From assembly GCA_016218715.1 (NCBI GenBank), contig JACRDG010000032.1, positions 372,001 to 436,000 on the forward strand: a stretch of DNA of 64,000 bases, written 5' to 3'. The position numbers and the translations under genes are program-made. Positions 4,728-43,833 of this stretch are shown here, piece after piece. Position 1 is the stretch's first letter. Every line of letters starts with the position of its first letter. The notes under the pieces were generated by a model that made no database searches, was not told the DNA's origin, and saw only the letters and a list, made by a program, of their open reading frames with translations. Source of the stretch: Desulfomonile tiedjei (GTDB taxonomy: Bacteria; Desulfobacterota; Desulfomonilia; Desulfomonilales; Desulfomonilaceae).

Positions 4728-7700
4728 TCAGGCCTTGTCCAGGACTCGACGGACCTGCTGCAGCAGCTCTTTCATCTTGAAGGGTTTGCTCACGAATCCC
4801 TTGGCCCCCGTTGCAAGGCAGTCCGTTCTGGCCGCATCCGCGGCATATCCGCTGGCCACCAGGACTCTCACCTGCGGGTCGATTCTCACCAGCTCGCCGA
4901 GACACTCACTTCCACCCATGGCGGGCATGATCAAATCGAGAACCACGAGAGCGATCTGATCTCTCTTCTGAGCGTACAAATCCAGTGCCTCCATCCCGTT
5001 GGCTGCCGTGAGGACCGTGTATCCGGATCTGCGGAGGATCCGCTCTCCCAGGTCGCGAACGAAGTCCTCATCGTCGACCAGGAGGATGGTTTCCGAACCG
5101 AATGCCGGCATTTCTCCGGCCGAGTCCGCCTCGTCTCCGGAGTCTGCCGCAATAGCCGGGAGGTAGACGTCGAACCGGGTCCCTTTGCCCACTTCACTGG
5201 AACAGGCGATGTGGCCGCCGTGCTGTCTGACGATACCATACACCATTGCCAGTCCCAGCCCTGTCCCTCGCCCCAATTCCTTCGTCGTGTAGAATGGCTC
5301 GAAGATATGATCGAGTGTCTCTCGACTCATTCCGTGACCGGTATCGGAAACCGACAGCAGGACGTAATCGCCTGGTTCCACCTCCGGATGCAGACTGCAG
5401 TAGCGATCGTCCAGAGTGACATTTGCGGTCTCCACAGCGATCGAGCCGCCTTCAGTGACCGCGTCCCGAGCATTGAGGGCCAGGTTCATGATGACCTGTT
5501 CTATTTGCGAGGGGTCAGCGTTCACTCTCTGCAGGTTATCGGCAAAGGTAAAGCGAATGTCTGTCATTCTGGGGATGGTGCGCCGCAAGAGTTGCTCCAC
5601 CGCGCCTATCCGTGCATTCAGGCTGATCGGAATGGGCTTGGATTCGACCTTTCTGCTGAAGGTGAGCAGACCCTTCACCAGTTCGGCCCCGCTGCGTGCC
5701 GCTTGCTGAATCTTCCGGAGGTCCGCGCATTCGGGATCGTCCTCGGACTTCTCCAACAGGAGCAACTCCGAATAGCCTAACGTAACCTGGAGGAGGTTGT
5801 TGAAGTCATGTGCAATGCCGCCTGCCAAGGTGCCGACGGCCTCCATTTTCTGGGCTTGCTGGAGCCGAGATTCCAACTGCCGTCGTTCAGCCTGAGCCCG
5901 CTCTCGCTCCGTGACGTCTCTGACGACGCCGACGAGATACTTCTTCCCGGCTGGGTCCACATAGAGGGACTTCTTGGTGACGATGGTATGGGTGATTCCC
6001 GTTCGGTCGGTGAAGTTCTCCTCGTTGATGTTTTCCCGCCCCGTCCTGAAGACTATTTCGTCCTTCTCCCAGAACACGTCCGCCTCTGACTTCGGGAAGA
6101 AGTCGTAGTCCGACTTCCCGATAAGCTCGTCGTGTGGATAGCCCATGAACGTGCAGTATGCGTCGTTGAGGAGTACCCATTCATGGTTTTCATTCTTGAC
6201 GAGAATGGGGTCCGCCACGGAGTTGATTATTCGGTCAAGGTAATGTTTTGCCTGTCGAAGCTCCTCTTCCGCGCGTTTGCGCTCGGTCAGGTCCACGCCA
6301 ACCCCTCGAAAGCCAACGACCTTCCCGTCTCTCTCGATGGGATTGGAATATGAGACGGTGGGGATGATCCTGCCGTCGAGTGTCTTTAGCCCGTACTCCC
6401 GCCCGATGATCTTTTCGCCTCTCAATATTCTGGCGAGATCCTCTCCGGCCGTCCCTGCGTCTTCCGGGGCAATGATCTCCAGGAGGTGGGTTCCTCTCGC
6501 GATGTGTTCCCATGTGTAGCCGGTGGTTTCCAGCGCAGCTTGATTGGCAAACGTGAAGAATCCCTCCTCGTTGGCCTCGAAAACGAACTGAGGCAACAGA
6601 TCGGCCAGATTCTTGAAACGCTTTTCACTCTCTCTTAGCTCGTCCTCCGCCTTCTTGCGTTCCGTCACATCTATAGCAAGGTGGAACTTCGCGTCGCGGC
6701 CGCTCGTCCACCTGATCATTCTGTCCGTTGCGAGGAAGTCCCGTCCCACAGTCGCGTTGTGATAATCCCACTGATACGGCTCCCCGTGCAGGCTGCAGAG
6801 CTTTTCAGTTATGCAATGCTCACACGGGCCGGGCGAGCCATGAAGTTCCTCGTAGCACTTACCGCCGACAAGCGCCTTCCCGTACAGATTCTTCGTAAAC
6901 CGATTCGTGTAAAGGATTTCATCGGTCTTCGGATCGATCACGAGAACCACTGCGTTCAGCCCTTCAAACAGGGCGAGGAGTTGTTCCTGCTCGACCCTTA
7001 AAGCCTCCTCCACCCGCTGTCGTTCGGAAATCTCGACCCGCAGTCTTTCATTCGCCTCTTTGAGGGAGGCCGTACGTTCGCCAACGTGTTTCTCGAGTTC
7101 GTCTCTGACGGTTCTCAGGTCGTCTTCCGCACTTTTCCGCCAGGTAATGTCCCGCGCGACACCGAAGATCAAGTTTTCTCGGGGTATCGGGAAACAATTC
7201 CACGAAACCCATCGATAAGTGCCATCCTTGTGCTGGCAGCGGTTTTCGAAGTAATGCAACGGTTCTCCGCCTGCCAGCATCTTGTGAGCCTCCAGAGTCT
7301 TCTCACGGTCATCAGGATGAACGAATTCGATCCGCGGGGTGCTCAATAACTCTTGTTCCGTCCACCCGAGCGTGCGAGTGAATGCAGGATTCACCTGCTT
7401 GTAACGTCCGTCCATTCCGGCAACACACAGCATGTCGAGAGACAAATTGAACAGTCGATCTCGCTCTTCTTCCGCCCTCTGGCGCTCGAGCACTATCCCC
7501 ATGCTCACGCCTAGTCCTTCGAGAAATCCGATCATCTCCGGAGTGAATCGGTCCTTGCGGGAGTCGTTGAGCTGGAGGAGCCCGATGATTTTGTGGTCCG
7601 AGCGCAACGGTATGAGTGCAACCGATTCATAGCCTTCCCCATTGCATCGGTTTCTGGTGAGGGCCTGGCGGTCTTCTTCGGAGGCGGTCGCGAGGAGTTG

Positions 7701-8162
7701 CGTGGTGCAGTTCGTCCAGAAGCTGCCCCCAGGCGTGAAGAAGGGCAAGGCCGGGTTGGTCCGTCCCTGAAGAATGTTGCCGCACATGCAGTCCAGAATG
7801 GGATAGCCCGCGGAATCGCGAAGAATTTCACCTTCCTCGGTTCTCCCGCAGAGAGAGGTTTCCGCTTCAACGAAAGCCGCTGAGAATCCCCGGGTCTCAA
7901 AATAGGGGAAATCGTCTCCGTCGCGCAGACGAATACCCACTGCCTCAAATGCCGTGAAGTCTTTCACCATCCCGATGAGTTCCCCGATCGCATCCCGAAC
8001 GGAAGCCTCCCGGCTCAAAAGCGTCAGGATTCGCAGGGCCAGGGCTTGACTCTCCTGTGCCCACTTCAATCGGCTCCGTAACGAATCCAAGTCGCTGCAA
8101 GCGGGCTCGGCCAGGTCTCGTTTCTCGGTCGTCTCGTTCTGGGTTTCGTTATCGTTCTTCAT
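4728..8162 (-). CDS. GAF-PAS(x4) hybrid histidine kinase with C-terminal receiver
   Basis: This 1144-residue sensor has no predicted membrane segment. Domains in order: GAF (~35-235); four PAS domains (~240-800) separated by short coiled coils; HisKA with the H-box [15 protein letters not shown]; HATPase_c (N-box LNARDAV, G-box [15 protein letters not shown]); and a receiver ([22 protein letters not shown]). The second PAS contains a Cys cluster around PCEHC, which could bind a metal or cluster. ATG 8162 is chosen because AGGAAA lies 8 nt upstream; the frame continues upstream without such a site. No partner regulator or HPt protein is adjacent, so the target is unknown. A terminator-like hairpin lies about 370 nt upstream. 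Confidence 0.93.
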
Positions 8163-9053
8163 GGATGGTTTCCTGACATGCTTCTGTCTCAGGCATCGTG
8201 CAGCGTCTGCGCAACTTGGTACCGGGCGGCAAGCCCAAGCTACAGAGTCACCGCTGATCCAACAAGTCCGGTGCGCCGGTCGGCGCGTTTGGGAACACCC
8301 GGGTAAGGAATGCGATGAACCCCGATGTAGTCCCCGCGTCACGTTGCTCACGGTCATCCACGGGACGGACTGCGGGTTCCGATCGGGTATCTGGTATCGG
8401 ATTATACCATACGGGTTCTACGGAAGGAAACAAGCCGTATTCCGGCAAACAAAGAAGAAACTACAGGCGGTTTTTCTCGAACGCACGATCGACGCAACGG
8501 CGGTCTCAGGCCCACCAGCGCAAGCCGCAAAAAAAATGAGAGGCGACCCGGGCCAATACCTTGAACGAGCCCGATCGCCTCTCCGGCTGCAAGAGTGCGC
8601 ACTGGAGGGGGTACCAAATTGCCAGTGCTGAATTGGGTAGGAACAAGTCTGCTGCACATATTCGGACAAGAATCATCCGATGGCAAGTCAGAAGATAATG
8701 AGATTCCGATGAGCAAACGGCTAGGGGGCTGTCGCGAAGCGTCACGCATTGAAGAACGGTTACGATCGTCGCAATCACACGGCTGGCGTACCCGTGCTGC
8801 GGGGAACGGAACAGACGCGGCGTTCGTCGAGGAAAGCTATCTTTCTGCAAAATCTTTCCCCGCGATCCCGCGTTTGATCTGCTGTGGCCGGTAAGGTAGA
8901 ATGCAGTGTCTCGGAGGGCCCGACCGCCCCGTGAAGGAGGCTGGATAGGCACTTCCGGACGGTAGGAGCCAGGATGATCGACACTCGGATGGAATTGGCC
9001 GACGACCTGTGGAAAACCGGTAGGGAAGTCGCGGTTAGAAAGGGCCGGTCAGA
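8163..9053. other. long intergenic region without a convincing gene
   Basis: This 890-bp spacer lies between two divergently transcribed genes. Short open frames occur on both strands, but none has a ribosome-binding site together with a recognisable protein pattern. The only clear structure is a minus-strand intrinsic terminator at 8529-8583. Confidence 0.5.
8529..8583 (-). terminator. minus-strand intrinsic terminator, possibly ending a small RNA or attenuating the kinase gene
   Basis: On the minus strand the arms GAGAGGCGA (8583-8575) and TCGCCTCTC (8546-8538) form a perfect 9-bp stem with an inner GGGC/GCCC pairing. A T followed by eight U residues completes it (8537-8529). No minus-strand gene lies upstream before 9053, so it does not end a recognisable coding transcript. 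Confidence 0.65.
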
Positions 9054-10742
9054 ATGAGGTCTTGCACACTTTGCATGGCGTTCTTCCTGTTCTTCGCGGT
9101 ATTCGGGAGCCCCGTCGCGGCTGAGGTAGCCCACCCATTGGCCCCTCCGGACACGTCGAGTCCGAGAGCTACGCTCAAGACGTTCCTGGACAATGGGAAT
9201 AAGGCGGTGGAAGCATTCAAGAGCGGCCACAGGACAGAGGCGAGGGCTCTCTTTGACCGTGCCGTGCGATGTTTGAACCTGGAAGAGGAACCGCCGGCTC
9301 TCCGGGAAGCCCTTGGAATCTACGCGGGCCTTTATCTGAAAGAAACCCTCGATCGTATCGAGATCCCTCCGTACGAGCAGATTCCCGACGCTGAAGCCGT
9401 CAAAATCGAAAAACTTACCAGTTGGACGGTCCCTTACACGGAGATCACTATCGGGGTCGTGAAAGACGCATCGATGGTAGAACGATTCTTCTTCACCAGC
9501 GATACGGTCAGGAGCGCTGAGAAATTTTATAATACGGTAAAGAACCTGCCTTACATGCCCGGCTCCGGCGGAGGGGCCTTCCTGGACAAATTGAGAGACT
9601 CGGGCAGCTGGATAGTCCCAAAACAATTCGTGGATTGGTTGCCGCAGTGGTCCAAGACGGAGATGTACGGCCAAGCAGTATGGCAGTGGACTGGGCTCTT
9701 TCTCTATTTTATCATTGGAATCGGAGCGGTCGTCCTCATACACAAATGGAGCGACACGCTCCTCGCGATTGTGGACAGGAAATTCGGATGGAGGCTCGAA
9801 CATACCGTGGGCGGCCTCAGCCTTCCGGTATCGCTGATCTTCTTTGCAGCGATCGGCCTCTGGCTCATGGTATACGGTCTGCACTTTCTGAATGCCGATC
9901 TGTATGTGCCGATTGCGTTGGTCTTCCTTTTCGTATCCTATCTGGGCTGGATTTGGTTGATCGGCGCGACATTCAATCGACTGTCCGATGCCTTTGTTTC
10001 ACTGGGCGGATTTGTTCGTGAAGGAATGGATGCCCAGCTTATACGGCTTGGCTTTCAAATTGTAACCGTGATCATTATCGGCGTTACGGCAATCTTTCTG
10101 GGCGCCCGTTTGGGTCTCCCGACGTACTCCCTGGTCACCGGGCTCGGTATCGGCGGCCTGGCCGTGGCGCTGGCGGGCCGGGAGGCCCTGTCAAATGTCA
10201 TCGGCACCGTCATGATCATCCTCGACCGCACGTTCAAGCTCGGCGACTATATTGTCCTCGATTCCGGCGAACGGGGCGTGGTTGCGGAGGTAGGCATTCG
10301 CAGCACTCGCATTCGAACCAGGGACGACATTCTGATATCGATTCCCAACGCGGTTATTGCCAATGCTAAAATGATCAACGAGAGCGCTCCTGTCTCAACC
10401 CACCGTATCCGCATCCCGGTGGGTGTGGCTTACGGTTCCAACCTGAAGGAGGTCGAGCGCATATTGCTCGGAGTCGCCGAACAGACTCAATTAGTCGTCC
10501 CCACTCCGGCCCCTCGAGTTCGGTTCCGACGCTTCGGCGATTCGGCCCTCGAGCTCGAGCTGTTGTGCTGGATCGATCCTCCGGAATTAAAGGGAGAAAC
10601 GACCCACCACCTGAACCGGGCTATCTACGAGGAGTTTCAGGGCAAAGGAATTGAGATACCTTTTCCACAGCGAGATGTCCATATCCTGCGAAACCAAACG
10701 GCCTCGCGTGAGAACAGCGATAATGAGTCTTCCGGCGGGTAG
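9054..10742 (+). CDS. MscS-family mechanosensitive ion channel
   Basis: The product is 562 residues. An N-terminal signal sequence ending near PVAAEVA precedes a soluble extracytoplasmic domain of about 180 residues. Transmembrane helices follow (LFLYFIIGIGAVVLI; LPVSLIFFAAIGLWLMVYG; VPIALVFLFVSYLGWIWLI). The MscS pore/beta domain core is seen in GLGIGGLAVALAGREALSN and in FKLGDYIVLDSGERGVV. MscS channels release solutes on hypo-osmotic shock. At 562 residues this is about twice the length of E. coli MscS, so it belongs to the larger multi-TM subgroup. It is followed by a repeat-rich spacer and appears monocistronic. The start has only a modest Shine-Dalgarno (AAAGGG). Confidence 0.9.
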   Translation: MRSCTLCMAFFLFFAVFGSPVAAEVAHPLAPPDTSSPRATLKTFLDNGNKAVEAFKSGHRTEARALFDRAVRCLNLEEEPPALREALGIYAGLYLKETLDRIEIPPYEQIPDAEAVKIEKLTSWTVPYTEITIGVVKDASMVERFFFTSDTVRSAEKFYNTVKNLPYMPGSGGGAFLDKLRDSGSWIVPKQFVDWLPQWSKTEMYGQAVWQWTGLFLYFIIGIGAVVLIHKWSDTLLAIVDRKFGWRLEHTVGGLSLPVSLIFFAAIGLWLMVYGLHFLNADLYVPIALVFLFVSYLGWIWLIGATFNRLSDAFVSLGGFVREGMDAQLIRLGFQIVTVIIIGVTAIFLGARLGLPTYSLVTGLGIGGLAVALAGREALSNVIGTVMIILDRTFKLGDYIVLDSGERGVVAEVGIRSTRIRTRDDILISIPNAVIANAKMINESAPVSTHRIRIPVGVAYGSNLKEVERILLGVAEQTQLVVPTPAPRVRFRRFGDSALELELLCWIDPPELKGETTHHLNRAIYEEFQGKGIEIPFPQRDVHILRNQTASRENSDNESSGG

Positions 10743-11171
10743 AGCACTACTGGACGAATACCACAGTATAATCGCGGAAGTCTGCGCAAGGTGTGGCAAG
10801 CGAATCGAACCGCACCGCTCAAGGTGAGGGCACCCATGCAAGCAGCCGGGAATCGGCCACGGGAACACCGCTGATGGAGAGGCCTGCATCCGGAAGAGCG
10901 ACCGGCAAGTTGCCGGCCCCACTGAACGACCAAGAGCAGGGACCGCATGGGAGCCACGGTGTCTGAGAAACCGATTACGCAGTAATCCTTCACGCAAGCA
11001 CGATCACGCATTTCGGGGAGCATGGAGGGACAGGCGGCGCGCCTGTCCATCAGGAAATGACAGGGAAGATGCCTCTGCCCGCCAATCCAGCACCGAAGCC
11101 TACCAAGCTACCCGAAGCAAGCCTCAGGTGTTACCCTGGCAGCGCGATTACGGCCCGAGAGGACATGATTC
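10743..11171. repeat. spacer with dispersed palindromic repeats
   Basis: Positions 10828-10924, read on the minus strand, carry a repeat beginning near GGGGCCGGCAACTTGCCGG. It is also found at 30907-30960 and 43971-44070. A hairpin GGACAGGCGGCGCGCCTGTCC-like unit lies at 11027-11048 and resembles those at 33686-33706 and 38481-38500. A motif at 10798-10824 resembles 44112-44138. No coding sequence is visible. Confidence 0.5.
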
Positions 11172-12026
11172 ATGTTCGTTGATGCTCACTGCCACATCTT
11201 CACCGATCGGATCGTCGAGAACGTGAAGGCCAAACCGGCCATGATCGAGGAATTGAAGTTGAATACGCGTGGCGCGGTCCAAAGGCTCGACCCCAGGGCC
11301 CTGGAGGAATCCGCGGAAGCGAACGCTGTGGACGTGTGCGTGTTGCTCCCCACTGCGTCACCGGAACGCATACGCTCCGAAAACGATCGATTCGTCGGGT
11401 TCAGCCGGGAATTCCCGAGGCTCCGGACCTTCGCGACCCTGCACCCGGAGATGCAGGACCTCTCCGGCGAGATCCAACGCATCTTCGACCTTGGGATCAA
11501 CGGATTCAAGTTTTCGAGCTTCTCGCAGCGCTTCGATCTGTCATCGCCGGAAGTCGAGGCCATGCTGACAGAATTGGAACGACTGGGACGCGATCGGGCC
11601 ATACCACCTGTCCTGGTGTTTGATACCTTCATCCGAGCGGATATTCATTTCGGCGCGCAACCCGATTATCTGACCACGCCTTCCAAATTGGCGGAGCTTG
11701 CCCGCCGTCATGAAGGGCTCAACGTGGTCGGCGCTCACATGGGGGGCCTGCTTGCTGACTTCGATGAACTCCGGCGGGTTCTCCTGCCTGCGCCGAATCT
11801 CTATCTGGACACTGCCAATGCAGCTCATACGCTGGAGCATGGCCAGTTTGTCGAATTGCTTCGTACGCATGGCGCTTCCCGGATTCTCTTCGGTACTGAC
11901 TGGCCCTGGTTCACTCACACAGGGGAACGTGCGCTGATCGGTTCCCTCCTGACCCAGGCCGGTTACGACTCATCAGAGCAAGCAGCGGTTTTCGGAGAAA
12001 ATGCCGAGGGACTTCTGGGACTTTGA
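11172..12026 (+). CDS. amidohydrolase-family TIM-barrel hydrolase
   Basis: This is a 284-residue protein of the amidohydrolase-2 (ACMSD-like) type. The metal-binding HxH is in VDAHCHIF (His6, His8). A later histidine lies in VVGAHMGG, and the acid in LFGTDWPW near the C-terminus. Family members hydrolyse or decarboxylate small cyclic or aromatic acids using one divalent metal. The substrate cannot be read from the sequence. The gene converges on the small exported protein at 12039 with 12 bp between stops. Its length is normal for the family. Confidence 0.85.
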   Translation: MFVDAHCHIFTDRIVENVKAKPAMIEELKLNTRGAVQRLDPRALEESAEANAVDVCVLLPTASPERIRSENDRFVGFSREFPRLRTFATLHPEMQDLSGEIQRIFDLGINGFKFSSFSQRFDLSSPEVEAMLTELERLGRDRAIPPVLVFDTFIRADIHFGAQPDYLTTPSKLAELARRHEGLNVVGAHMGGLLADFDELRRVLLPAPNLYLDTANAAHTLEHGQFVELLRTHGASRILFGTDWPWFTHTGERALIGSLLTQAGYDSSEQAAVFGENAEGLLGL

Positions 12027-12038
12027 CAGACGAGGGCC

Positions 12039-12449
12039 TCAGCGCGTCGTGGTGTAGTTGGAACAGGCTTCGAGGAGCGTTCCTCGCATTTTGATTCTCT
12101 TGTCCAGCAGCTCGTCAAACCCTTTCGTGGTCGGGTCCGTGGCGACGACCTGTTCGACGAGCTTTGGGTACGCCAGGGCATCCTCCAGGAGCGACGCCTG
12201 TTCCTTGCGGGTTACGACTTGGGTAAGCGCCTTCTGGGCCTCGGCGTACTTCTCCGCACGTCTCTCCGGCTCCTTGATCGAACCCGCAGCGTCTACCTTG
12301 GCGACATACTGCTCCAGAGCCGCACACACTTCGGCAGGCAAGGCCTTGGATAGCGGTTTCCCTCTGTCTGGAGCTTGTTGAGCTTCAACAAGCGATATCA
12401 TGCCAAGCAAGATGGCTCCCACTATCAAGCATACCGTGGTTCTCTTCAT
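12039..12449 (-). CDS. small exported hypothetical protein
   Basis: The product is 136 residues with a clear Sec signal peptide (cleavage probably after VEAQQ). The mature part is charged and mainly helical, with Cys near residues 41 and 130. GAGGA lies 6 nt before the ATG. I do not recognise the family. It lies 56 bp downstream of the RND pump gene in the same direction, so it may be cotranscribed and act in the periplasm. Confidence 0.7.
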   Translation of the reverse strand: MKRTTVCLIVGAILLGMISLVEAQQAPDRGKPLSKALPAEVCAALEQYVAKVDAAGSIKEPERRAEKYAEAQKALTQVVTRKEQASLLEDALAYPKLVEQVVATDPTTKGFDELLDKRIKMRGTLLEACSNYTTTR

Positions 12450-12505
12450 GAAAGTCCTCGTTCAAGGTGAAGATTCGAGCAGATCTTTCCCGCGCGTGCT
12501 CGCTA

Positions 12506-15500
12506 TCATTCCGCGTTTTGTGGTCGCACTGCATCAGTAGGCCGTGCGCCGCCTCTCTTGAACTTCTGCATGAGCACGTACATCGGCGGCGTGAAGAAAA
12601 CTCCCAGCATGGTGACCCCCAGCATACCGAAACAGACCGCGGTGCCGACGGCCTGCCTGCTGGCAGCACCCGCGCCCGTGGCAATCACCAGCGGAAACAC
12701 GCCGATGATGAATGCAAAAGAGGTCATGAGAATGGCCCTGAATCGGAGCTTCGCCCCCTCCACGGCAGCTTCCAGGGGAGACTTACCCTCCGCTTGCTTT
12801 TCCCGCGCGAACTCCACGACGAGGATCGCATTCTTGGCCGACAAGCCGACCAGGAGCACGAGCCCCACCTGCGTGTACAGACTGTTATCCAGGCCGCGCA
12901 GGGTCAGTCCGATAACCGCGCCCAGCGCAGCCAGAGGCACGACGGTAACGACTGCTATCGGATCGATCCAGCTCTCGTACTGGGCTGCCAGAATCATCAC
13001 CACCACCATCACCGCGAGGGCAAAGACCATGTACACTTGACCGCCGATCTGCTTCTGCTGAAAAGCCACTCCTGTCCATTCATACCCGGTGCCGGGGGGG
13101 AGGTTCGTTTCGGCCAGGCTCTCCATCGCCTGCATGGTCTGTCCCGAACTCACGCCTGGAGCACCCTGGCCTATGACGCGGATTGCGGGGAACATGTTGT
13201 ACCGATCGATCCGCAAGGGCCCTGACGCATAATTCACCTTGGCCAGCGTGCCGATGGGGACCATCTGCCCTTCCAGGTTTCTCACCTCGAGCTGCTTGAT
13301 GTCATCCGTCCGCGCCCGGTACCTTGCGTCTGCCTGGACCGTCACGTGCCAGGTCCGTCCGAATTCGTTGAAGTCATTGACGTACGAGGATCCCAGGTAC
13401 GCCTGGAGCGTGTCGAACACCGATTGCAGAGGTACCTTGAGGGTCAGCGCTTTGTCTCGATCCACATCGGCAAAAATCGTCGGCGCGGCCGGCCTGAACG
13501 TCGAGGTCAGCGCGCTCAGTTGGCCATGGGCAGTCGATTCCTTCACCATTTCGGACGCTGCCTCGTTCAAGTTCTCGAGGCCGACACCGCTTCGGTCCTC
13601 GATCCACATTTCGCTCCCCGAGGCCTGGCCGAGACCCACAATCGGCGGCAACGAGAACGGAAAGACGATGCCGTCCTGGATGTGGGAAAACTTCTCCGTC
13701 AGCTCCGCCAGAATAACTCGCTTGCTGCGCCCTTTCTTGAGGCGCTCGTCCCACGGCTGCAGTGCAGCAAAACCCGATCCCAAAGTAGCGCCGCTGCCGT
13801 CGAGGATCGAATTGCCCGGGATGACGGCAAAGTGAGCAATACCCTCCGTGGATTTGAGAATGTCCATGACCTGCTGCATGACGGCATCGGTCCGCTGAAG
13901 GGAAGCTCCATCGGGGAGCTGAGCGTTGAGCATGATCAGGCCGTCGTCTTCGTCCGGGAGGAATCCCGTAGGCACATTTGTAAAGGCGTAGTACGTCAGG
14001 CCAAGGGCCGCGGCCCATATCAGCACCATGAGCGGCACGTTGCGTACGAGAAATGCCACGATGGATGTGTAACGAGCGGTGATCTTGTCGAAGACCGCGT
14101 CGAACCCGCGGAAGAAGGCGTTCTTTTCTCCCTCGTGTGGGCGCAGCCACAACGAGCACTGGACGGGTTTCAGCGACATTGCGTTCACAGCGCTCAGCAA
14201 CGTCGTGAACGCAATGGTCAATGAGAACTGCCGGTAGAGCTGGCCCGAGATCCCGCCAAGGAATGCAGCGGGAATGAAGACCGCCATGAGAACGAGCGTG
14301 ATGCCTATGATGGCGCCGGTAATCTCATCCATCGCCCGGATGGAGGCATCTTTTGCGTTCAGCCCGTGTTGCCGCATGTTGCGGTCGACGTTTTCCACCA
14401 CCACGATCGCGTCGTCTACTACAATCCCAATGGCCAGTACCAGGCCGAAGAGGGTCAACATGTTGATGGAGAACCCCAGCAAGTACATGATGGCAAAGGC
14501 ACCGACAATCGACACCGGAACGGTGGTGGCGGGCACGAGCGTGGCTCGCCAGTCCTGAAGAAAGATGAATACCACGATGAAGACGAGGATAAACGCTATG
14601 ATGAGCGTCATCACCACTTCATGAATCGACGCCCTGACGAAATCCGAGCTTTGATAAACGATCTTGTAGTCCACCCCCTGCGGGAAGTCCCGCTTGAGGC
14701 CCTCCATGGTCCGCTGGACCTCATCAGCGACGTCCAGAGCGTTCGATCCCGGCGTCTGGTACACGATCATCGTGACCGCTGGGACCCCGTTGTAGTACGA
14801 ACGGGTATCATAGCTTTTCGCACCGAGGTCCACGCTGGCGACGTCCTTCATCCGCACGATGCTGCCGTCTTTACCGGTCTTCACGATGATGTTTTCGAAC
14901 TGCCCCACGTCGGTCAAACGACCGAGCGTGTTCACGGGGAGGTCAAAGACTTGTCCTTTGGGAGCAGGCTCCTGACCGAGCCGGCCGGCCGCGACTTGAA
15001 CGTTCTGATTCTTGAGCGCGTCGACCACATCGTTGGTGGTCAGGTCGTTGTGCTGCATACGGTTGGGGTTCAACCAACAGCGCATGCTGTAGTCCTTGGT
15101 AGGAAACATCACGACGTCGCCGACCCCATGAAGGCGGGCCACCGGGTCTTTGATGGTGGTAGTCACGTAGTTGGTCAGAAACAGGTCGTCGAACGAGCCG
15201 TCCGGGGAGTAGAGGCAGAGGACGGTAACAAAGGAGGTGGAAGCTTTCTTCGTATTGACTCCCTGGCGCTGCACTTCGGTTGGCAGTGACGACATGGCCC
15301 AGTTCACGCGGTTCTGAACCAGCACGGTGGCCATGTCGATGTCAGTGCCCAGTTCAAAGGTAACCTTCAGCGTGTACGATCCGTCGCGCGCACTCGTGCT
15401 CTGCATATAGATCATGTTTTCCACGCCGTTGACTTGCTGCTCGATGGGCGCGGCTACGGTGTCGGCCACAACCTTCGGATCGGCTCCCGGATAAGAGGCC

Positions 15501-35611: not shown

Positions 35612-36073
35612 TTATCCGGCAGACTCGGGGATCGCCGAAGGGGGCTGGCGTTTCGTCAATCCTTTCGACCTCAAGAGCTGCAACCGCTTCTTGACCGCCT
35701 CTTTGTTCCGATCCGTGAGTAGGTCAGCAATTTCACGGTTGCTCATCGGCACGGTCAGAACAACCAGGTCTTCCCTCAGCGTCCAGGCTTTGGGCGAGGT
35801 ATTCCTCTTGAGACCCATAAGGACCTTCAGCTCCTTGGAGTTGAACTGTCGCAGCAGCGAATGACTCTCTCTGATCTGGTCGAGGCGCCGTTTCAACGCC
35901 GCGTCGACAGGCGGGGGCGGAACGTAGTAATTATCGTCGGGCTCGAACTCAGTGGCCGGTTCCCCCTCGAGCCACGTTTCGAAATCCTTGTCATCGGCCC
36001 ACCACGGCTCGTCGAGACTCGTTCGAGCAGCCTCCGTCTTAATCCTTTTCCCTTTGCGTTCTTTGTTACCCAC
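35612..36073 (-). CDS. hypothetical protein with C-terminal winged-helix-like segment
   Basis: The product is 153 residues, starting at GTG 36073 behind AGAGGGA. The N-terminal half is acidic and probably disordered. The C-terminal ~50 residues (VPMSNREIADLLTDRNKEAV, then KRLQLLRSKGL) look like a helix-turn-helix in which one helix ends in the RLQLLRSKGL pattern common to winged-helix regulators. Its target is unknown. I do not recognise the full-length family. Confidence 0.6.
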   Translation of the reverse strand: MGNKERKGKRIKTEAARTSLDEPWWADDKDFETWLEGEPATEFEPDDNYYVPPPPVDAALKRRLDQIRESHSLLRQFNSKELKVLMGLKRNTSPKAWTLREDLVVLTVPMSNREIADLLTDRNKEAVKKRLQLLRSKGLTKRQPPSAIPESAG

Positions 36074-36358: not shown

Positions 36359-37024
36359 TCACCACCAGGACTGCCCCAAAGGTGGCGAGGAAACAGACCG
36401 AGAGGGCGGAGTCCGAAAAAATTCCGTGGTCTTCTCTTTCAACCGATCGTACGGGTCACGAGCCGCCTCGGGGGAGTTGCCCGATCGGTGTGCCGCGGCC
36501 ACCGCAGCTCCGTGCGCAGGTACATCCACAGGGTTGCGCACGCGGATCACCATTCCGGAGCTTACATCGACAACAGCCCTGTCCCGAACCGCCGGCGGAG
36601 CGATACCCGGCGCATTTGACGCGCTCTCAGCACCTTGGGCCGCAGTCCGCTGGACGGAGGGCCTCTGTGCCCGCTCCTTTCGTTGAGCGGGTTGCCCGCG
36701 AAATCCCTGGGCATTGCGATTTGGAGAGGTCGCGACGGAGGGTTGCGTCACCGTGTTCGCCTGACCGTCCTTGCCGATGGTACTGACCGTGAGTGTGTAC
36801 GGTCCTCCACTATGGCCTTGCTGGGCCTGCACTGGAGCCGGCTCCTGATTGGCCGGGGCCGGAACCATGCCGTACTGGCTCCCATAAGCATTCGCACCTG
36901 AAAAATAGCTCGGTCCTTCCGACCAGAAGGAAGGGCCACATCACCCGGCTCCGACAATGCGAGGAGTCGCAAACATCAGAAGCGCCAAGACAAGACACAC
37001 CGCTCCAGGCCTGTTGAAGGTCAT
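36359..37024 (-). CDS. secreted proline/alanine-rich protein interrupted by an in-frame TGA after the signal peptide
   Basis: On the minus strand ATG 37024, 5 nt after a GAGG ribosome-binding site, begins a good signal peptide (AVCLVLALLMFATPRIVGAG). The next codon, 28, is TGA (36943-36941). The same frame then continues for 193 residues without a stop. It begins CGPSFWSEGPSYFSGANAYG and ends GQSWW, with a low-complexity middle rich in Pro, Ala and Gln. Just after the TGA is a hairpin, CCTTCC-TTCTGGTC-GGAAGG. Three readings remain open: a nonsense mutation (pseudogene), selenocysteine insertion, or a sequencing error. No homologue is recognised. The shorter frame from the internal Met at 36868 lacks a signal peptide and is a poor start. 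Confidence 0.5.
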
Positions 37025-37176
37025 TTCCGCCTCATTGAGAAGGTTGTCTAAGCTAATGGTTCACAGCGGATTCTACATGGATGCGGCCCATTTGTCATTC
37101 TTTTTTTCGGTCAGCCGATGACGCCAGGACTGGTGCAGGACTCGGCCACCGAGAACCCATCGCCTCCCGCAGCGGT

Positions 37177-38430
37177 TCAGTCGGTCTGGTCTTTGTCCAA
37201 TTTGATTCTGAAGAATTTTCGCTTTCCGACCTGAACCAGTTGCTCCCGAGCTCCGATCCGGATCTCTTGCACCGGATCTCCGACGCGCACGTTGTCTATT
37301 TTGACTGCGCCGTCGTTGAGCAGTCTCCTCGCCTCGGAGGTCGACTTCGCAGTCAGCTTGGCCACCAGTTTGTCAGCGGGGAACGTCGCCTCCTTCAATA
37401 CCCACAACGGGGCATCCTCAGGGGTTTCTTTTCGCTGAACTATCCGCTCGAAGTGATCTTCCGCGGCGACGGCCGCCTCTTTACTGTGGTATTCCGCGAC
37501 GATACTCCTTGCGAGAGACTTCTTGATCTGCATCGGATGCAGCGGATCCATGAGATCCTGGTGCTTTTCCACCTCCGCAAGCGCCCGCTCGTAACGATCC
37601 ACCTCGGCCTGTTCCACATCCGTGAGGAGCGTGAAGTACTTCACGATAAGAAAGTCCTGGATCGACATGGTCTTTCCGAACATCTCTTCGGGGACATCGT
37701 CCACGGCGATGTAGTTTCTCGCGGTCTTGCTCATCTTCTTGGATCCGTCAAGCCCTTCGATGAGCGGGGTCATGATCACCACCTGCGGTGGTTGGCCGAA
37801 CTGGGCCTGGAGGTCCCGGCCGGCAAGAAGGTTGAATTTCTGGTCGGTCCCTCCCAGTTCGACGTGACACTTCAGCGCCACGCTGTCGTACCCCTGCATG
37901 AGCGGGTACAGAAACTCGCTTATGCTGATCGGGCTCCCCTCCCGGTATCTCTTCTCAAAATCGTTTCGTTCCAGCATCCTGGCTACGGTGGACCGGTACG
38001 CCAGGTCCAGGGCATCGGCGAAGTCCATGGAATCGAACCATTCGCCGTTGTTACGCATTTCGGTCTTTTCCTCGTCCAGGATCTTAAAGACCTGTTTCTT
38101 GAAATGCTTGGCGTGCTCCCAGACTTGTTCCTTGGTAAGCCTCACTCTCGCCTCGCTGCGCTCTGTCGGGTCGCCGATGCGGGCGGTGAAGTCGCCGACG
38201 AGGAAGATCGAAGTGTGGCCGAGTTCCTGAAAATGTCTCAGCTTGCGAATCGTGACCATGTGACCGAGGTGTATGTCCGCGGCGGTAGGGTCCACTCCGA
38301 GCTTTATGCGCAGCGGTTCCTTCTTTTTCAGACTCCAGCGGACCCGGTCGCTCATTTCATCTTGATGGATGATTTCTTCCACGCCCCGCATGATTCTCTT
38401 CATTTGGGTCTCAACGTCGGGAAACGACAT
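37177..38430 (-). CDS. tyrS: tyrosyl-tRNA synthetase
   Basis: The product is 417 residues. This class I enzyme charges tRNA-Tyr. It has the HIGH-type motif HLGH (in DIHLGHMVTI), the KMSKS-type loop GSKKMSKTARN, and a C-terminal S4 RNA-binding domain (TSEARRLLNDGAVKIDNVRV). The spacing places it in the TyrZ-like subgroup. ATG 38430 is preferred (AAAGGTGA upstream); a GTG 9 nt earlier is possible. No T-box leader was recognised. The upstream spacer is full of dispersed repeats. Confidence 0.96.
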   Translation of the reverse strand: MSFPDVETQMKRIMRGVEEIIHQDEMSDRVRWSLKKKEPLRIKLGVDPTAADIHLGHMVTIRKLRHFQELGHTSIFLVGDFTARIGDPTERSEARVRLTKEQVWEHAKHFKKQVFKILDEEKTEMRNNGEWFDSMDFADALDLAYRSTVARMLERNDFEKRYREGSPISISEFLYPLMQGYDSVALKCHVELGGTDQKFNLLAGRDLQAQFGQPPQVVIMTPLIEGLDGSKKMSKTARNYIAVDDVPEEMFGKTMSIQDFLIVKYFTLLTDVEQAEVDRYERALAEVEKHQDLMDPLHPMQIKKSLARSIVAEYHSKEAAVAAEDHFERIVQRKETPEDAPLWVLKEATFPADKLVAKLTAKSTSEARRLLNDGAVKIDNVRVGDPVQEIRIGAREQLVQVGKRKFFRIKLDKDQTD

Positions 38431-38439
38431 CCCTGTCAC

Positions 38440-41644: not shown

Positions 41645-43549
41645 TCACGGCAATGGGCTTGGGCCCTTTTCCGCAACGAACGCAATACTTGCCGATGAGG
41701 CCACCACGATGACCGAACCGATGTTGTGAACGATCGCGCCCATGACCGGGGAGAGGATGCCCCAGCCACCCGCCAGGATCGCGACCACATTGAAGAGCAA
41801 TCCGAACGCGATGTTCCACTTGATCGTCCGAAGCGTTTTCCTCCCCAACTCGATGAGAAAGGGGATCTTCGAGATATCATCGTGCATCAAGGCCACGTCT
41901 GCGGTTTCAAGCGCCACATCGGTTCCGGCCGCTCCCATAGCAATGCCGACGTTGGCTGTGGCAAGAGCGGGGGCATCATTGATTCCGTCGCCCACGAACA
42001 GCACAGTCTTGCCGGAGGCCTGAAAATCGCGGATGGTCCCGAGCTTGTCTTGAGGCTTCTGTTCGGACCATGCATCGGTGAGGCCGACCTCCTGTGCCAC
42101 GAGGTGAACCGACCGCCCGTGATCTCCCGAGAGGATCCCGACACGCTGGATTCCCAAGGATTTCAGGCGTCGCACCGTTTCTCGGGCTGACGGCCGGACG
42201 GGGTCGGAGACACTCATGACTCCGAGCGGTTGGCGATCCTCGTACACCACCAACGGCGTTTCCCCCTTTTCTTTGAAAACCTCTATCTGCTGCCGCAGAG
42301 CGGGAGGTAACTCCAGGGTGCCGCCGCCGATGTAGGCGCTTCCTACTTCGACCAGTCTTCCGTCGACGCAGGCTCGAACTCCCAGGCCGATTTCCGTTAC
42401 CATCTCCTCTGCCCTGGAGAGCGTCACTCTGGCGTACAAGGCGGCCTTGAGCACAGCCCGGGCCAAGGGATGGGTGCTGTCTTGCTCAACCGACGCTGCG
42501 CACGAGAGCACCTTTCGCTTTCCAACACCGTCGATCGGCAGGATTGTCCCAATACGTGGCTGGCCCGCTGTCAAGGTTCCGGTCTTGTCGAACAAGACCA
42601 CGTCGGTCCGGCCGGCCTCTTCAAGAAACCGCCCGCCTTTTACCAGAATGCCCGATCCGGCGGCTCGTCCTATTGCAGCAACGATGGCCGTGGGTGCTGC
42701 CAATATAAGGGCACAGGGGCAGCCGACGATCAGGACGGTCACCGCGCGGCTCACCTCCCCGGTGAGTAACCATGCTACCCCGGAGCAGACGAGAATCGTT
42801 GGAGTGAACCATGCGGCGTACCGATCCACCAGACTGATGGCGCGCGGCTTGAAGCTCTCCGCGGCAGAGACCAGCCTGATGACCTTGCCGAGCGTCGTGT
42901 CTTCACCGAGGAATTGTGCCTCGATTTCGATGACGCCGTTCTGATTCAACGTTCCGGCATAGACCGCGTCCCCTGAGGCTTTCTGTTTCGGAATAGGCTC
43001 TCCTGTCATGGAGGATTCGTCTACCGCGGTAACCCCTGCGACCACCGTCGCGTCGACAGGAATGCGCTCGCCCGGCCTTACGAGAAGAATGTCACCGACC
43101 TTTACGGCTTTGACCGGGACGGTCTGCGGCTTGCCGTCGACCAGCAGCGTCGCCTCTTCCGGTGCGAGGTTCATGAGGGACTGGATAGCCCGCTGGGCAG
43201 CGCCGCTCGTGATCCGCTCGATGAGCGACCCCAGCACCATGACGAAACTCACCACTACCGCAGTCGAGAATTCTCCTAAGAGTATGCTCGCGATCAGGGC
43301 AAGACTGACGAGTTCGTCCACATTGACCCGCCGCTGCACCAGACCCCTCATTGCGCCCCACACGATAGGCAACCCGTTGACGGCGAGGGACGCCAGCATG
43401 AGAGCCAACCCCAACGTGGTTTGTCCCTCATGCTTCAAGTCCCAGAGATAGCCGGCAAGGCCGAGCAATCCGCCGAGACCTACCCGGTAGATGTCCTTCG
43501 ACCGAGACAGTTCGTGGTAAACCCCGAGATGACCGAAACGACCGATCAT
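41645..43549 (-). CDS. P1B-type heavy-metal ATPase, probable Cu(I) exporter
   Basis: The product is 634 residues. It has the phosphorylation motif FDKTGTLTAGQP, the hinge GDGINDAPAL, the metal-domain STHPLARAV and the membrane CPC motif in VGCPCALILAAP, which marks a soft-metal transporter. No N-terminal heavy-metal-binding (CxxC) domain is present; the protein starts almost directly at the first helices. The start is ATG 43549 with GAGG upstream, 8 bp after the csoR-like gene. The Cu(I)-type ligands of the regulator support copper, but the last membrane helix (IVHNIGSVIVV) is not a textbook CopA sequence. Confidence 0.92.
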   Translation of the reverse strand: MIGRFGHLGVYHELSRSKDIYRVGLGGLLGLAGYLWDLKHEGQTTLGLALMLASLAVNGLPIVWGAMRGLVQRRVNVDELVSLALIASILLGEFSTAVVVSFVMVLGSLIERITSGAAQRAIQSLMNLAPEEATLLVDGKPQTVPVKAVKVGDILLVRPGERIPVDATVVAGVTAVDESSMTGEPIPKQKASGDAVYAGTLNQNGVIEIEAQFLGEDTTLGKVIRLVSAAESFKPRAISLVDRYAAWFTPTILVCSGVAWLLTGEVSRAVTVLIVGCPCALILAAPTAIVAAIGRAAGSGILVKGGRFLEEAGRTDVVLFDKTGTLTAGQPRIGTILPIDGVGKRKVLSCAASVEQDSTHPLARAVLKAALYARVTLSRAEEMVTEIGLGVRACVDGRLVEVGSAYIGGGTLELPPALRQQIEVFKEKGETPLVVYEDRQPLGVMSVSDPVRPSARETVRRLKSLGIQRVGILSGDHGRSVHLVAQEVGLTDAWSEQKPQDKLGTIRDFQASGKTVLFVGDGINDAPALATANVGIAMGAAGTDVALETADVALMHDDISKIPFLIELGRKTLRTIKWNIAFGLLFNVVAILAGGWGILSPVMGAIVHNIGSVIVVASSASIAFVAEKGPSPLP

Positions 43550-43557
43550 GGCGACCT

Positions 43558-43833
43558 CTATTTGGTGAACTTGAAAAAGATGTCCGTGACCTCGCGGATC
43601 AGCCGTTGGTGGTCCGTATCGTTTCGGATGGCCTTGGAGACGCATCCCTTCAGGTGATCCTCCAGCAGCACCATGCCCAAAGAGCGCATCGCTCCGACCG
43701 TAGCGGCGATCTGCTTGAGAACGTCCATACATTCGCGGTCGTCCTCCACCATCTTGCGAATGCCTTTGACTTGACCGTCGATGCGACTGATCCGGTCGAT
43801 GAGTTTCTTATGGTCGTCCCCGCAGAGTGCCAT
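43558..43833 (-). CDS. csoR: CsoR/RcnR-family metal-sensing repressor
   Basis: This 91-residue all-helical DUF156 repressor has Cys35, His60 and Cys64 in the CsoR positions (x-C-H-C fingerprint). That set matches Cu(I) sensors rather than the Ni/Co sensor RcnR, which uses more histidines. It is the first gene of a two-gene operon with the P1B ATPase. The start has GGAGG 7 nt upstream. It would release the promoter at 43867-43894 on binding Cu(I). Confidence 0.9.
   Translation of the reverse strand: MALCGDDHKKLIDRISRIDGQVKGIRKMVEDDRECMDVLKQIAATVGAMRSLGMVLLEDHLKGCVSKAIRNDTDHQRLIREVTDIFFKFTK

What the first reader, a model, noticed from the sequence alone, without database searches (positions are those of the whole stretch)
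36359..37024. In-frame TGA directly after a signal peptide, followed by a hairpin with a GG loop
Seen: GAGG site, ATG 37024, a good signal peptide, TGA at codon 28, then the same frame open for 193 codons starting CGPSFW. A hairpin CCTTCC/GGAAGG begins 6 nt after the TGA, with GGTC in its loop 17-20 nt downstream. Known: bacterial SECIS elements are hairpins just 3' of UGA with G in the apical loop. Inference: either a selenoprotein candidate at the mature N-terminus or a recent nonsense mutation.
Basis: partly seen in the sequence, partly recalled or inferred. Interest (0 to 1): 0.6.

Follow-up and report, generated by a model that had tools for sequence, protein, structure and literature searches.

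The report
New secreted selenoprotein family, undescribed
The apparent stop codon just after the signal peptide is present in the related gene of seven bacterial genera, next to the RNA hairpin that marks selenocysteine, so this is very probably a real but so far unnamed exported selenium protein rather than a broken gene.

Summary
In detail: ATG 37024 (GAGG site), signal peptide, TGA at codon 28 (36941-36943), then 193 open codons. The selenoprotein reading is strongly supported; the nonsense-mutation reading is rejected. The genome encodes tRNA-Sec (anticodon TCA), SelA and SelB, plus formate dehydrogenases with an internal TGA. Homologues in six other genera of the same family (Desulfomonilaceae-like, inferred from named loci) all have TGA at exactly this codon. 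Six of the seven form a clear orthologue set: signal peptide, G/A-U-C, FWxEGPSYF-like block, C-terminal LGxxW. The seventh is short and divergent. No cysteine version was found. Downstream codons often differ synonymously, so translation passes the TGA. A hairpin with a GG loop lies 16-22 nt after the TGA in all seven, keeps 94% of pairs and has double-sided changes; it shares its apical sequence (TCT-GG..-AGA) with the formate dehydrogenase SECIS of the same genome. No Pfam, NCBIfam or convincing PDB relative was found, and the 2026 catalogue of 119 prokaryotic selenoprotein families lists nothing that matches. The mature protein is predicted disordered, with Sec-Cys near its N-terminus. Its biochemical role (redox or metal binding in the envelope) is inference only.

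The parts
37070..37098 (-). promoter-like site ATGACA-17-TAGAAT in the gap after tyrS; a TGACA element lies upstream of the start in all seven homologues
   Evidence: (10 of 12 matches); consensus match only
37030..37033 (-). GAGG ribosome-binding site, 5 nt before the ATG
   Evidence: GAGG at a similar place before the start in all seven homologues
36944..37024 (-). signal peptide, codons 1-27, ending ...VGAG; likely signal peptidase I cut at VGA|G (inferred)
36941..36943 (-). TGA, codon 28, read as selenocysteine
   Evidence: TGA in all seven homologues; Sec machinery
36914..36931 (-). bacterial SECIS-like hairpin TCCTTCT-GGTC-GGAAGGA; loop starts 16 nt after the TGA
   Evidence: resembles the fdhA SECIS of the same genome
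36359..36940 (-). rest of the mature protein: CGPSFWSEGPSYF block, low-complexity middle, C-terminal PLGQSWW, stop TGA
37177..38439 (-). upstream neighbour tyrS (tyrosyl-tRNA synthetase); not part of the system; syntenic in five genera; its own stop is TGA, so TGA is a normal stop in this genome
35612..36073 (-). downstream neighbour, winged-helix HTH protein; also near the homologue in G005, G006 and G010; not part of the system

Best explanation
It is a gene for a new family of exported selenoproteins. SelB carrying Sec-tRNA(Sec) binds the GG-loop hairpin that starts about 10 nt after UGA codon 28, and the ribosome inserts selenocysteine there and reads on to the stop at 36359 (decoding inferred from conservation and machinery, not shown by experiment). 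The signal peptide then sends the chain across the inner membrane. After cleavage near VGA|G the mature protein begins with a short Gly-Sec-Cys-Gly segment, followed by an aromatic block and a disordered Pro/Gln/Ser-rich tail ending in LGxxW. The adjacent selenol and thiol near the N-terminus most likely form the working site, as a selenenylsulfide redox pair or a soft-metal ligand in the periplasm or on the cell surface. This last step is inference, with perhaps 0.4 confidence for redox and 0.3 for metal binding; the confidence given below is for the selenoprotein reading.
For: TGA occupies the same alignment column in all seven homologues from seven genera (found). Five are syntenic behind tyrS. 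Protein-level conservation continues directly after the TGA: 56 synonymous against 117 non-synonymous codon differences in the first 19 columns, and LGxxW at the C-terminus in six. tRNA-Sec 71.3 bits with anticodon TCA, SelB 384 bits, SelA 590 bits. Formate dehydrogenase in the same genome has an internal TGA and a SECIS with the same apical TCT-GG-AGA core. Hairpin: 93.9% of pair cells standard against at most 63% when slid; two pairs with double-sided changes; covariation score reached by 0 of 500 shuffles. Loops start with GG or TGG, 16-22 nt from the TGA, within the published bSECIS limits of 16-37 nt spacing, 3-9 nt loop and a G in its first two positions (PMC13188914). Synonymous-codon shuffles: combined p 0.0016, treating sequences as independent.
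Against: No protein or selenium data. The hairpin on its own is modest: the synonymous-shuffle p is 0.02-0.33 per sequence, and folding the window and G006 segments gave z-scores near zero. No cysteine homologue exists to show a catalytic cysteine at this place. The G003 member is short and divergent, with U-A-G-C instead of U-C-G. The molecular role is unknown; the structure model has mean pLDDT 54.
Confidence: 0.92

Rival explanations
1. Recent nonsense mutation or sequencing error in an ordinary gene for an exported protein.
For: A single genome alone would look like this.
Against: The same TGA stands in seven genera, in separately assembled genomes, with coding constraint after it.
Confidence: 0.01
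2. The TGA is a true stop: a 27-residue secreted leader, with a separate downstream protein started at an internal codon such as ATG 36868.
For: An ATG-started ORF of 169 aa exists downstream.
Against: The best conserved protein block (FWxEGPSYF and its variants) lies directly after the TGA and before that start codon, in frame with the signal peptide, in all six clear homologues. A downstream start would lose export and that block.
Confidence: 0.03
3. Read-through of TGA with an ordinary amino acid (Trp, Cys or other) by a suppressor or near-cognate tRNA, without selenium.
For: Read-through would also keep the frame conserved.
Against: Nearby genes end in TGA, so TGA is a normal stop. The only anticodon-TCA tRNA seen is tRNA-Sec, although the whole genome could not be scanned with ARAGORN. 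The SECIS-like hairpin covaries. No homologue uses a sense codon.
Confidence: 0.04

Closest known systems
Formate dehydrogenase alpha subunit (FdhA, TIGR01553) of the same genome
   Same: In-frame TGA with a downstream hairpin; apical core TCT-GG..-AGA shared. Works like it at the level of decoding.
   Different: Unrelated protein; Sec in a molybdopterin enzyme followed by His, not in a disordered exported chain.
Hypothetical protein DG, NF049953 (motif GUxG; deep-Sep paper PMC12013277; Table 1 of PMC13188914)
   Same: Short Sec motif GUxG fits Gly-Sec-Cys-Gly on paper; also from a sulfate-reducing bacterium group.
   Different: The NF049953 model gives no match to this locus, and no NCBIfam model matches any of the five members scanned at E up to 10.
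Proteins with an adjacent Cys-Sec pair (SaoC, KCU-star, MbdU; motif CU in Table 1 of PMC13188914)
   Same: Vicinal selenol and thiol.
   Different: Order reversed (U then C), placed right after a signal peptide, no sequence match to any NCBIfam model.

Membership tests
Bacterial selenoprotein gene | In-frame TGA conserved among homologues, as TGA or Cys | tested here: met
   TGA in 7 of 7
Bacterial selenoprotein gene | Genome encodes tRNA-Sec, SelA, SelB | tested here: met
   (selD not searched)
Bacterial selenoprotein gene | bSECIS: loop 3-9 nt with a G in its first two positions, stem 4-16 bp, 16-37 nt from the TGA | tested here: met
   Geometry met in all seven
Bacterial selenoprotein gene | bSECIS minimum free energy at most -7.5 kcal/mol | tested here: met
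   Local folds of the five first members -12 to -14 kcal/mol; the contiguous core stem alone is -4.6 to -11.8, with the window at -7.4 and G008 weakest
Bacterial selenoprotein gene | Cysteine-containing homologues (usual, not obligatory) | tested here: not met
   None by the A1 profile in 395 phylum and 42 class genomes, nor by an exact motif in the GTDB genome contigs
Bacterial selenoprotein gene | Selenium present in the protein | not testable with these tools
   needs 75Se or mass spectrometry
Hypothetical protein DG (NF049953) | Match to the curated family model | tested here: not met
   no match at this locus
Any named Pfam or NCBIfam family | Match to a family model | tested here: not met

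The most novel reading that the evidence does not exclude
A selenium-only family, with no cysteine form, in which selenocysteine sits within the first few residues of a mature, disordered exported protein and uses the free N-terminus, Se and S together as a metal or redox hook.
Probability: 0.2. Interest if true: 0.75.

Novelty: new member of a known kind. Interest (0 to 1): 0.6.

Why it matters
Standard gene callers end this gene at the TGA, so the whole family is likely missing or mis-annotated in public genomes. It adds an undescribed selenoprotein family that appears to exist only in the Sec form. It also puts selenocysteine near the mature N-terminus of an exported, disordered protein, which I did not find among the families of the 2026 catalogue, and so poses a testable question about what selenium does in the envelope of Desulfomonile-type bacteria.

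Tried and rejected
First scan of genome contigs with peptide patterns found no relative. The pattern UCGPxFW over 395 phylum genomes gave 47 hits; of the loci that could be read, only the window and G006 are real, and the others lack a signal peptide or an open frame. L097, an alphaproteobacterial exact match, is chance. The ribonuclease U2 hits in PDB (E 0.035) look like composition matches. RNA folding z-scores of the 54-nt segments were uninformative. The AlphaFold model is mostly below pLDDT 60, so no fold search was run. Rfam gave nothing relevant. The RND efflux operon next to the G003 gene fits general drug-efflux models better than the heavy-metal model and reaches no permease cut-off, so it does not show a metal role. 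Haft and Tolstoy 2025 was not held and could not be read.

Full report
Observation. The sequence reads as described. On the minus strand a GAGG site and ATG at 37024 open a 27-codon signal peptide, TGA follows at 36943-36941, and the same frame runs 193 more codons to a stop at 36359. The hairpin letters are also as described.

Selenium machinery. The window's genome (G000, 5.55 Mb, 124 contigs) has one tRNA-Sec above the Rfam cut-off (71.3 bits; ARAGORN anticodon TCA), selB (384 bits) and selA (590 bits). All 18 genomes of its family have selA. It also has formate dehydrogenases with an internal TGA. TGA is otherwise a normal stop: tyrS and other neighbours end in TGA.

Homologues. A protein search found one relative in another genus, and that relative has TGA at the same place. 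Reading the DNA behind tyrS in relatives gave three more, and a profile search over the class gave two further ones elsewhere in the genome. The seven, in seven genera, read: G000 VGAG-U-CGPSFWSEGPSYF; G006 AEGG-U-CGPTFWEEGPSYF; G001 EPGG-U-CGPAFWTEGVKYF; G005 SGAA-U-CDFAFWAEGPSYF; G010 AVAG-U-CGVGSAFWDEGPSFF; G008 SGAG-U-CGIGTGSWSGGMGF; G003 AEAG-U-AGCFPSWSGG (short, tentative). Six end in LGxxW. No homologue has a sense codon there. Two are named in the GTDB contigs: G006 is a deltaproteobacterial MAG and G001 a MAG named Desulfomonile tiedjei, which places the group near Desulfomonilaceae. Searches over 395 phylum genomes and an exact motif in the GTDB genome collection found no real member outside this family.

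Coding after the TGA. In the 19 columns after the TGA, 56 of 173 differing codon pairs among the six clear homologues are synonymous. The first conserved block lies before the downstream ATG. Hence translation passes the TGA.

Hairpin. All seven have a contiguous stem of 5-8 pairs whose 4-6 nt loop starts with GG or TGG, 16-22 nt after the TGA. Two members carry a two-codon insertion before it, which moves the hairpin but keeps it. On the alignment, 93.9% of cells pair, two pairs show changes on both sides, and no shuffle of 500 reaches the covariation score; slid versions fall to 43-63%. The G003 row takes part in one of the double-sided changes. Against synonymous recoding the stability is better than expected only in combination (p 0.0016), and 4% of all TGAs in the window have as stable a hairpin. 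So the hairpin is supporting, not primary, evidence. Its apical core (TCT-GG..-AGA) is that of the fdhA SECIS in the same genomes, which the same SelB must read.

Known or not. No Pfam or NCBIfam model matches and no solved structure is convincing. The 2026 review lists 119 families and subfamilies (PMC13188914). The entry whose motif resembles ours most, GUxG of protein DG (PMC12013277), belongs to a model that does not match here. I found no paper joining Desulfomonile and selenoproteins in the held library; most subscription papers are not held.

Function. The mature protein is probably exported by the Sec route; no twin-arginine motif is visible. AlphaFold gives a disordered chain with only the signal helix and a weak beta hairpin. 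With a Sec-Cys pair within a few residues of the new N-terminus, a redox pair or soft-metal ligand is the likeliest role. That is inference from chemistry, not evidence. A TGACA promoter-like element upstream of all seven, including the two that are not behind tyrS, suggests that the gene has its own promoter.

Noticed in passing
window 37070-37098, and upstream of the start in L061, L062, L064, L065, L130, L131: A TGACA (-35-like) element is present upstream of all seven homologues, in two flavours (AAAAAAxAATGACAAA-like and CTTGACAAACTCG-like), even where the gene is not behind tyrS; possibly a shared promoter or regulator site.
   Followed up: partly
L131:5907-6179 and 6547-13238: The short divergent TGA member of G003 (U-A-G-C motif) lies upstream of a TolC/adaptor/RND efflux gene cluster.
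   Followed up: partly
window 35612-36073: A winged-helix HTH gene accompanies the selenoprotein gene in several genera and stays beside tyrS in G003, where the selenoprotein gene is elsewhere.
   Followed up: no
window 41645-43833: Heavy-metal P-type ATPase with a CsoR/RcnR-type repressor gene, a few kilobases upstream of tyrS; no link to the finding shown.
   Followed up: no
window 51199 (+) and 62060 (-): Two other in-frame TGAs pass the ORF and G-loop hairpin filter but have no signal peptide or recognisable protein; likely chance.
   Followed up: no
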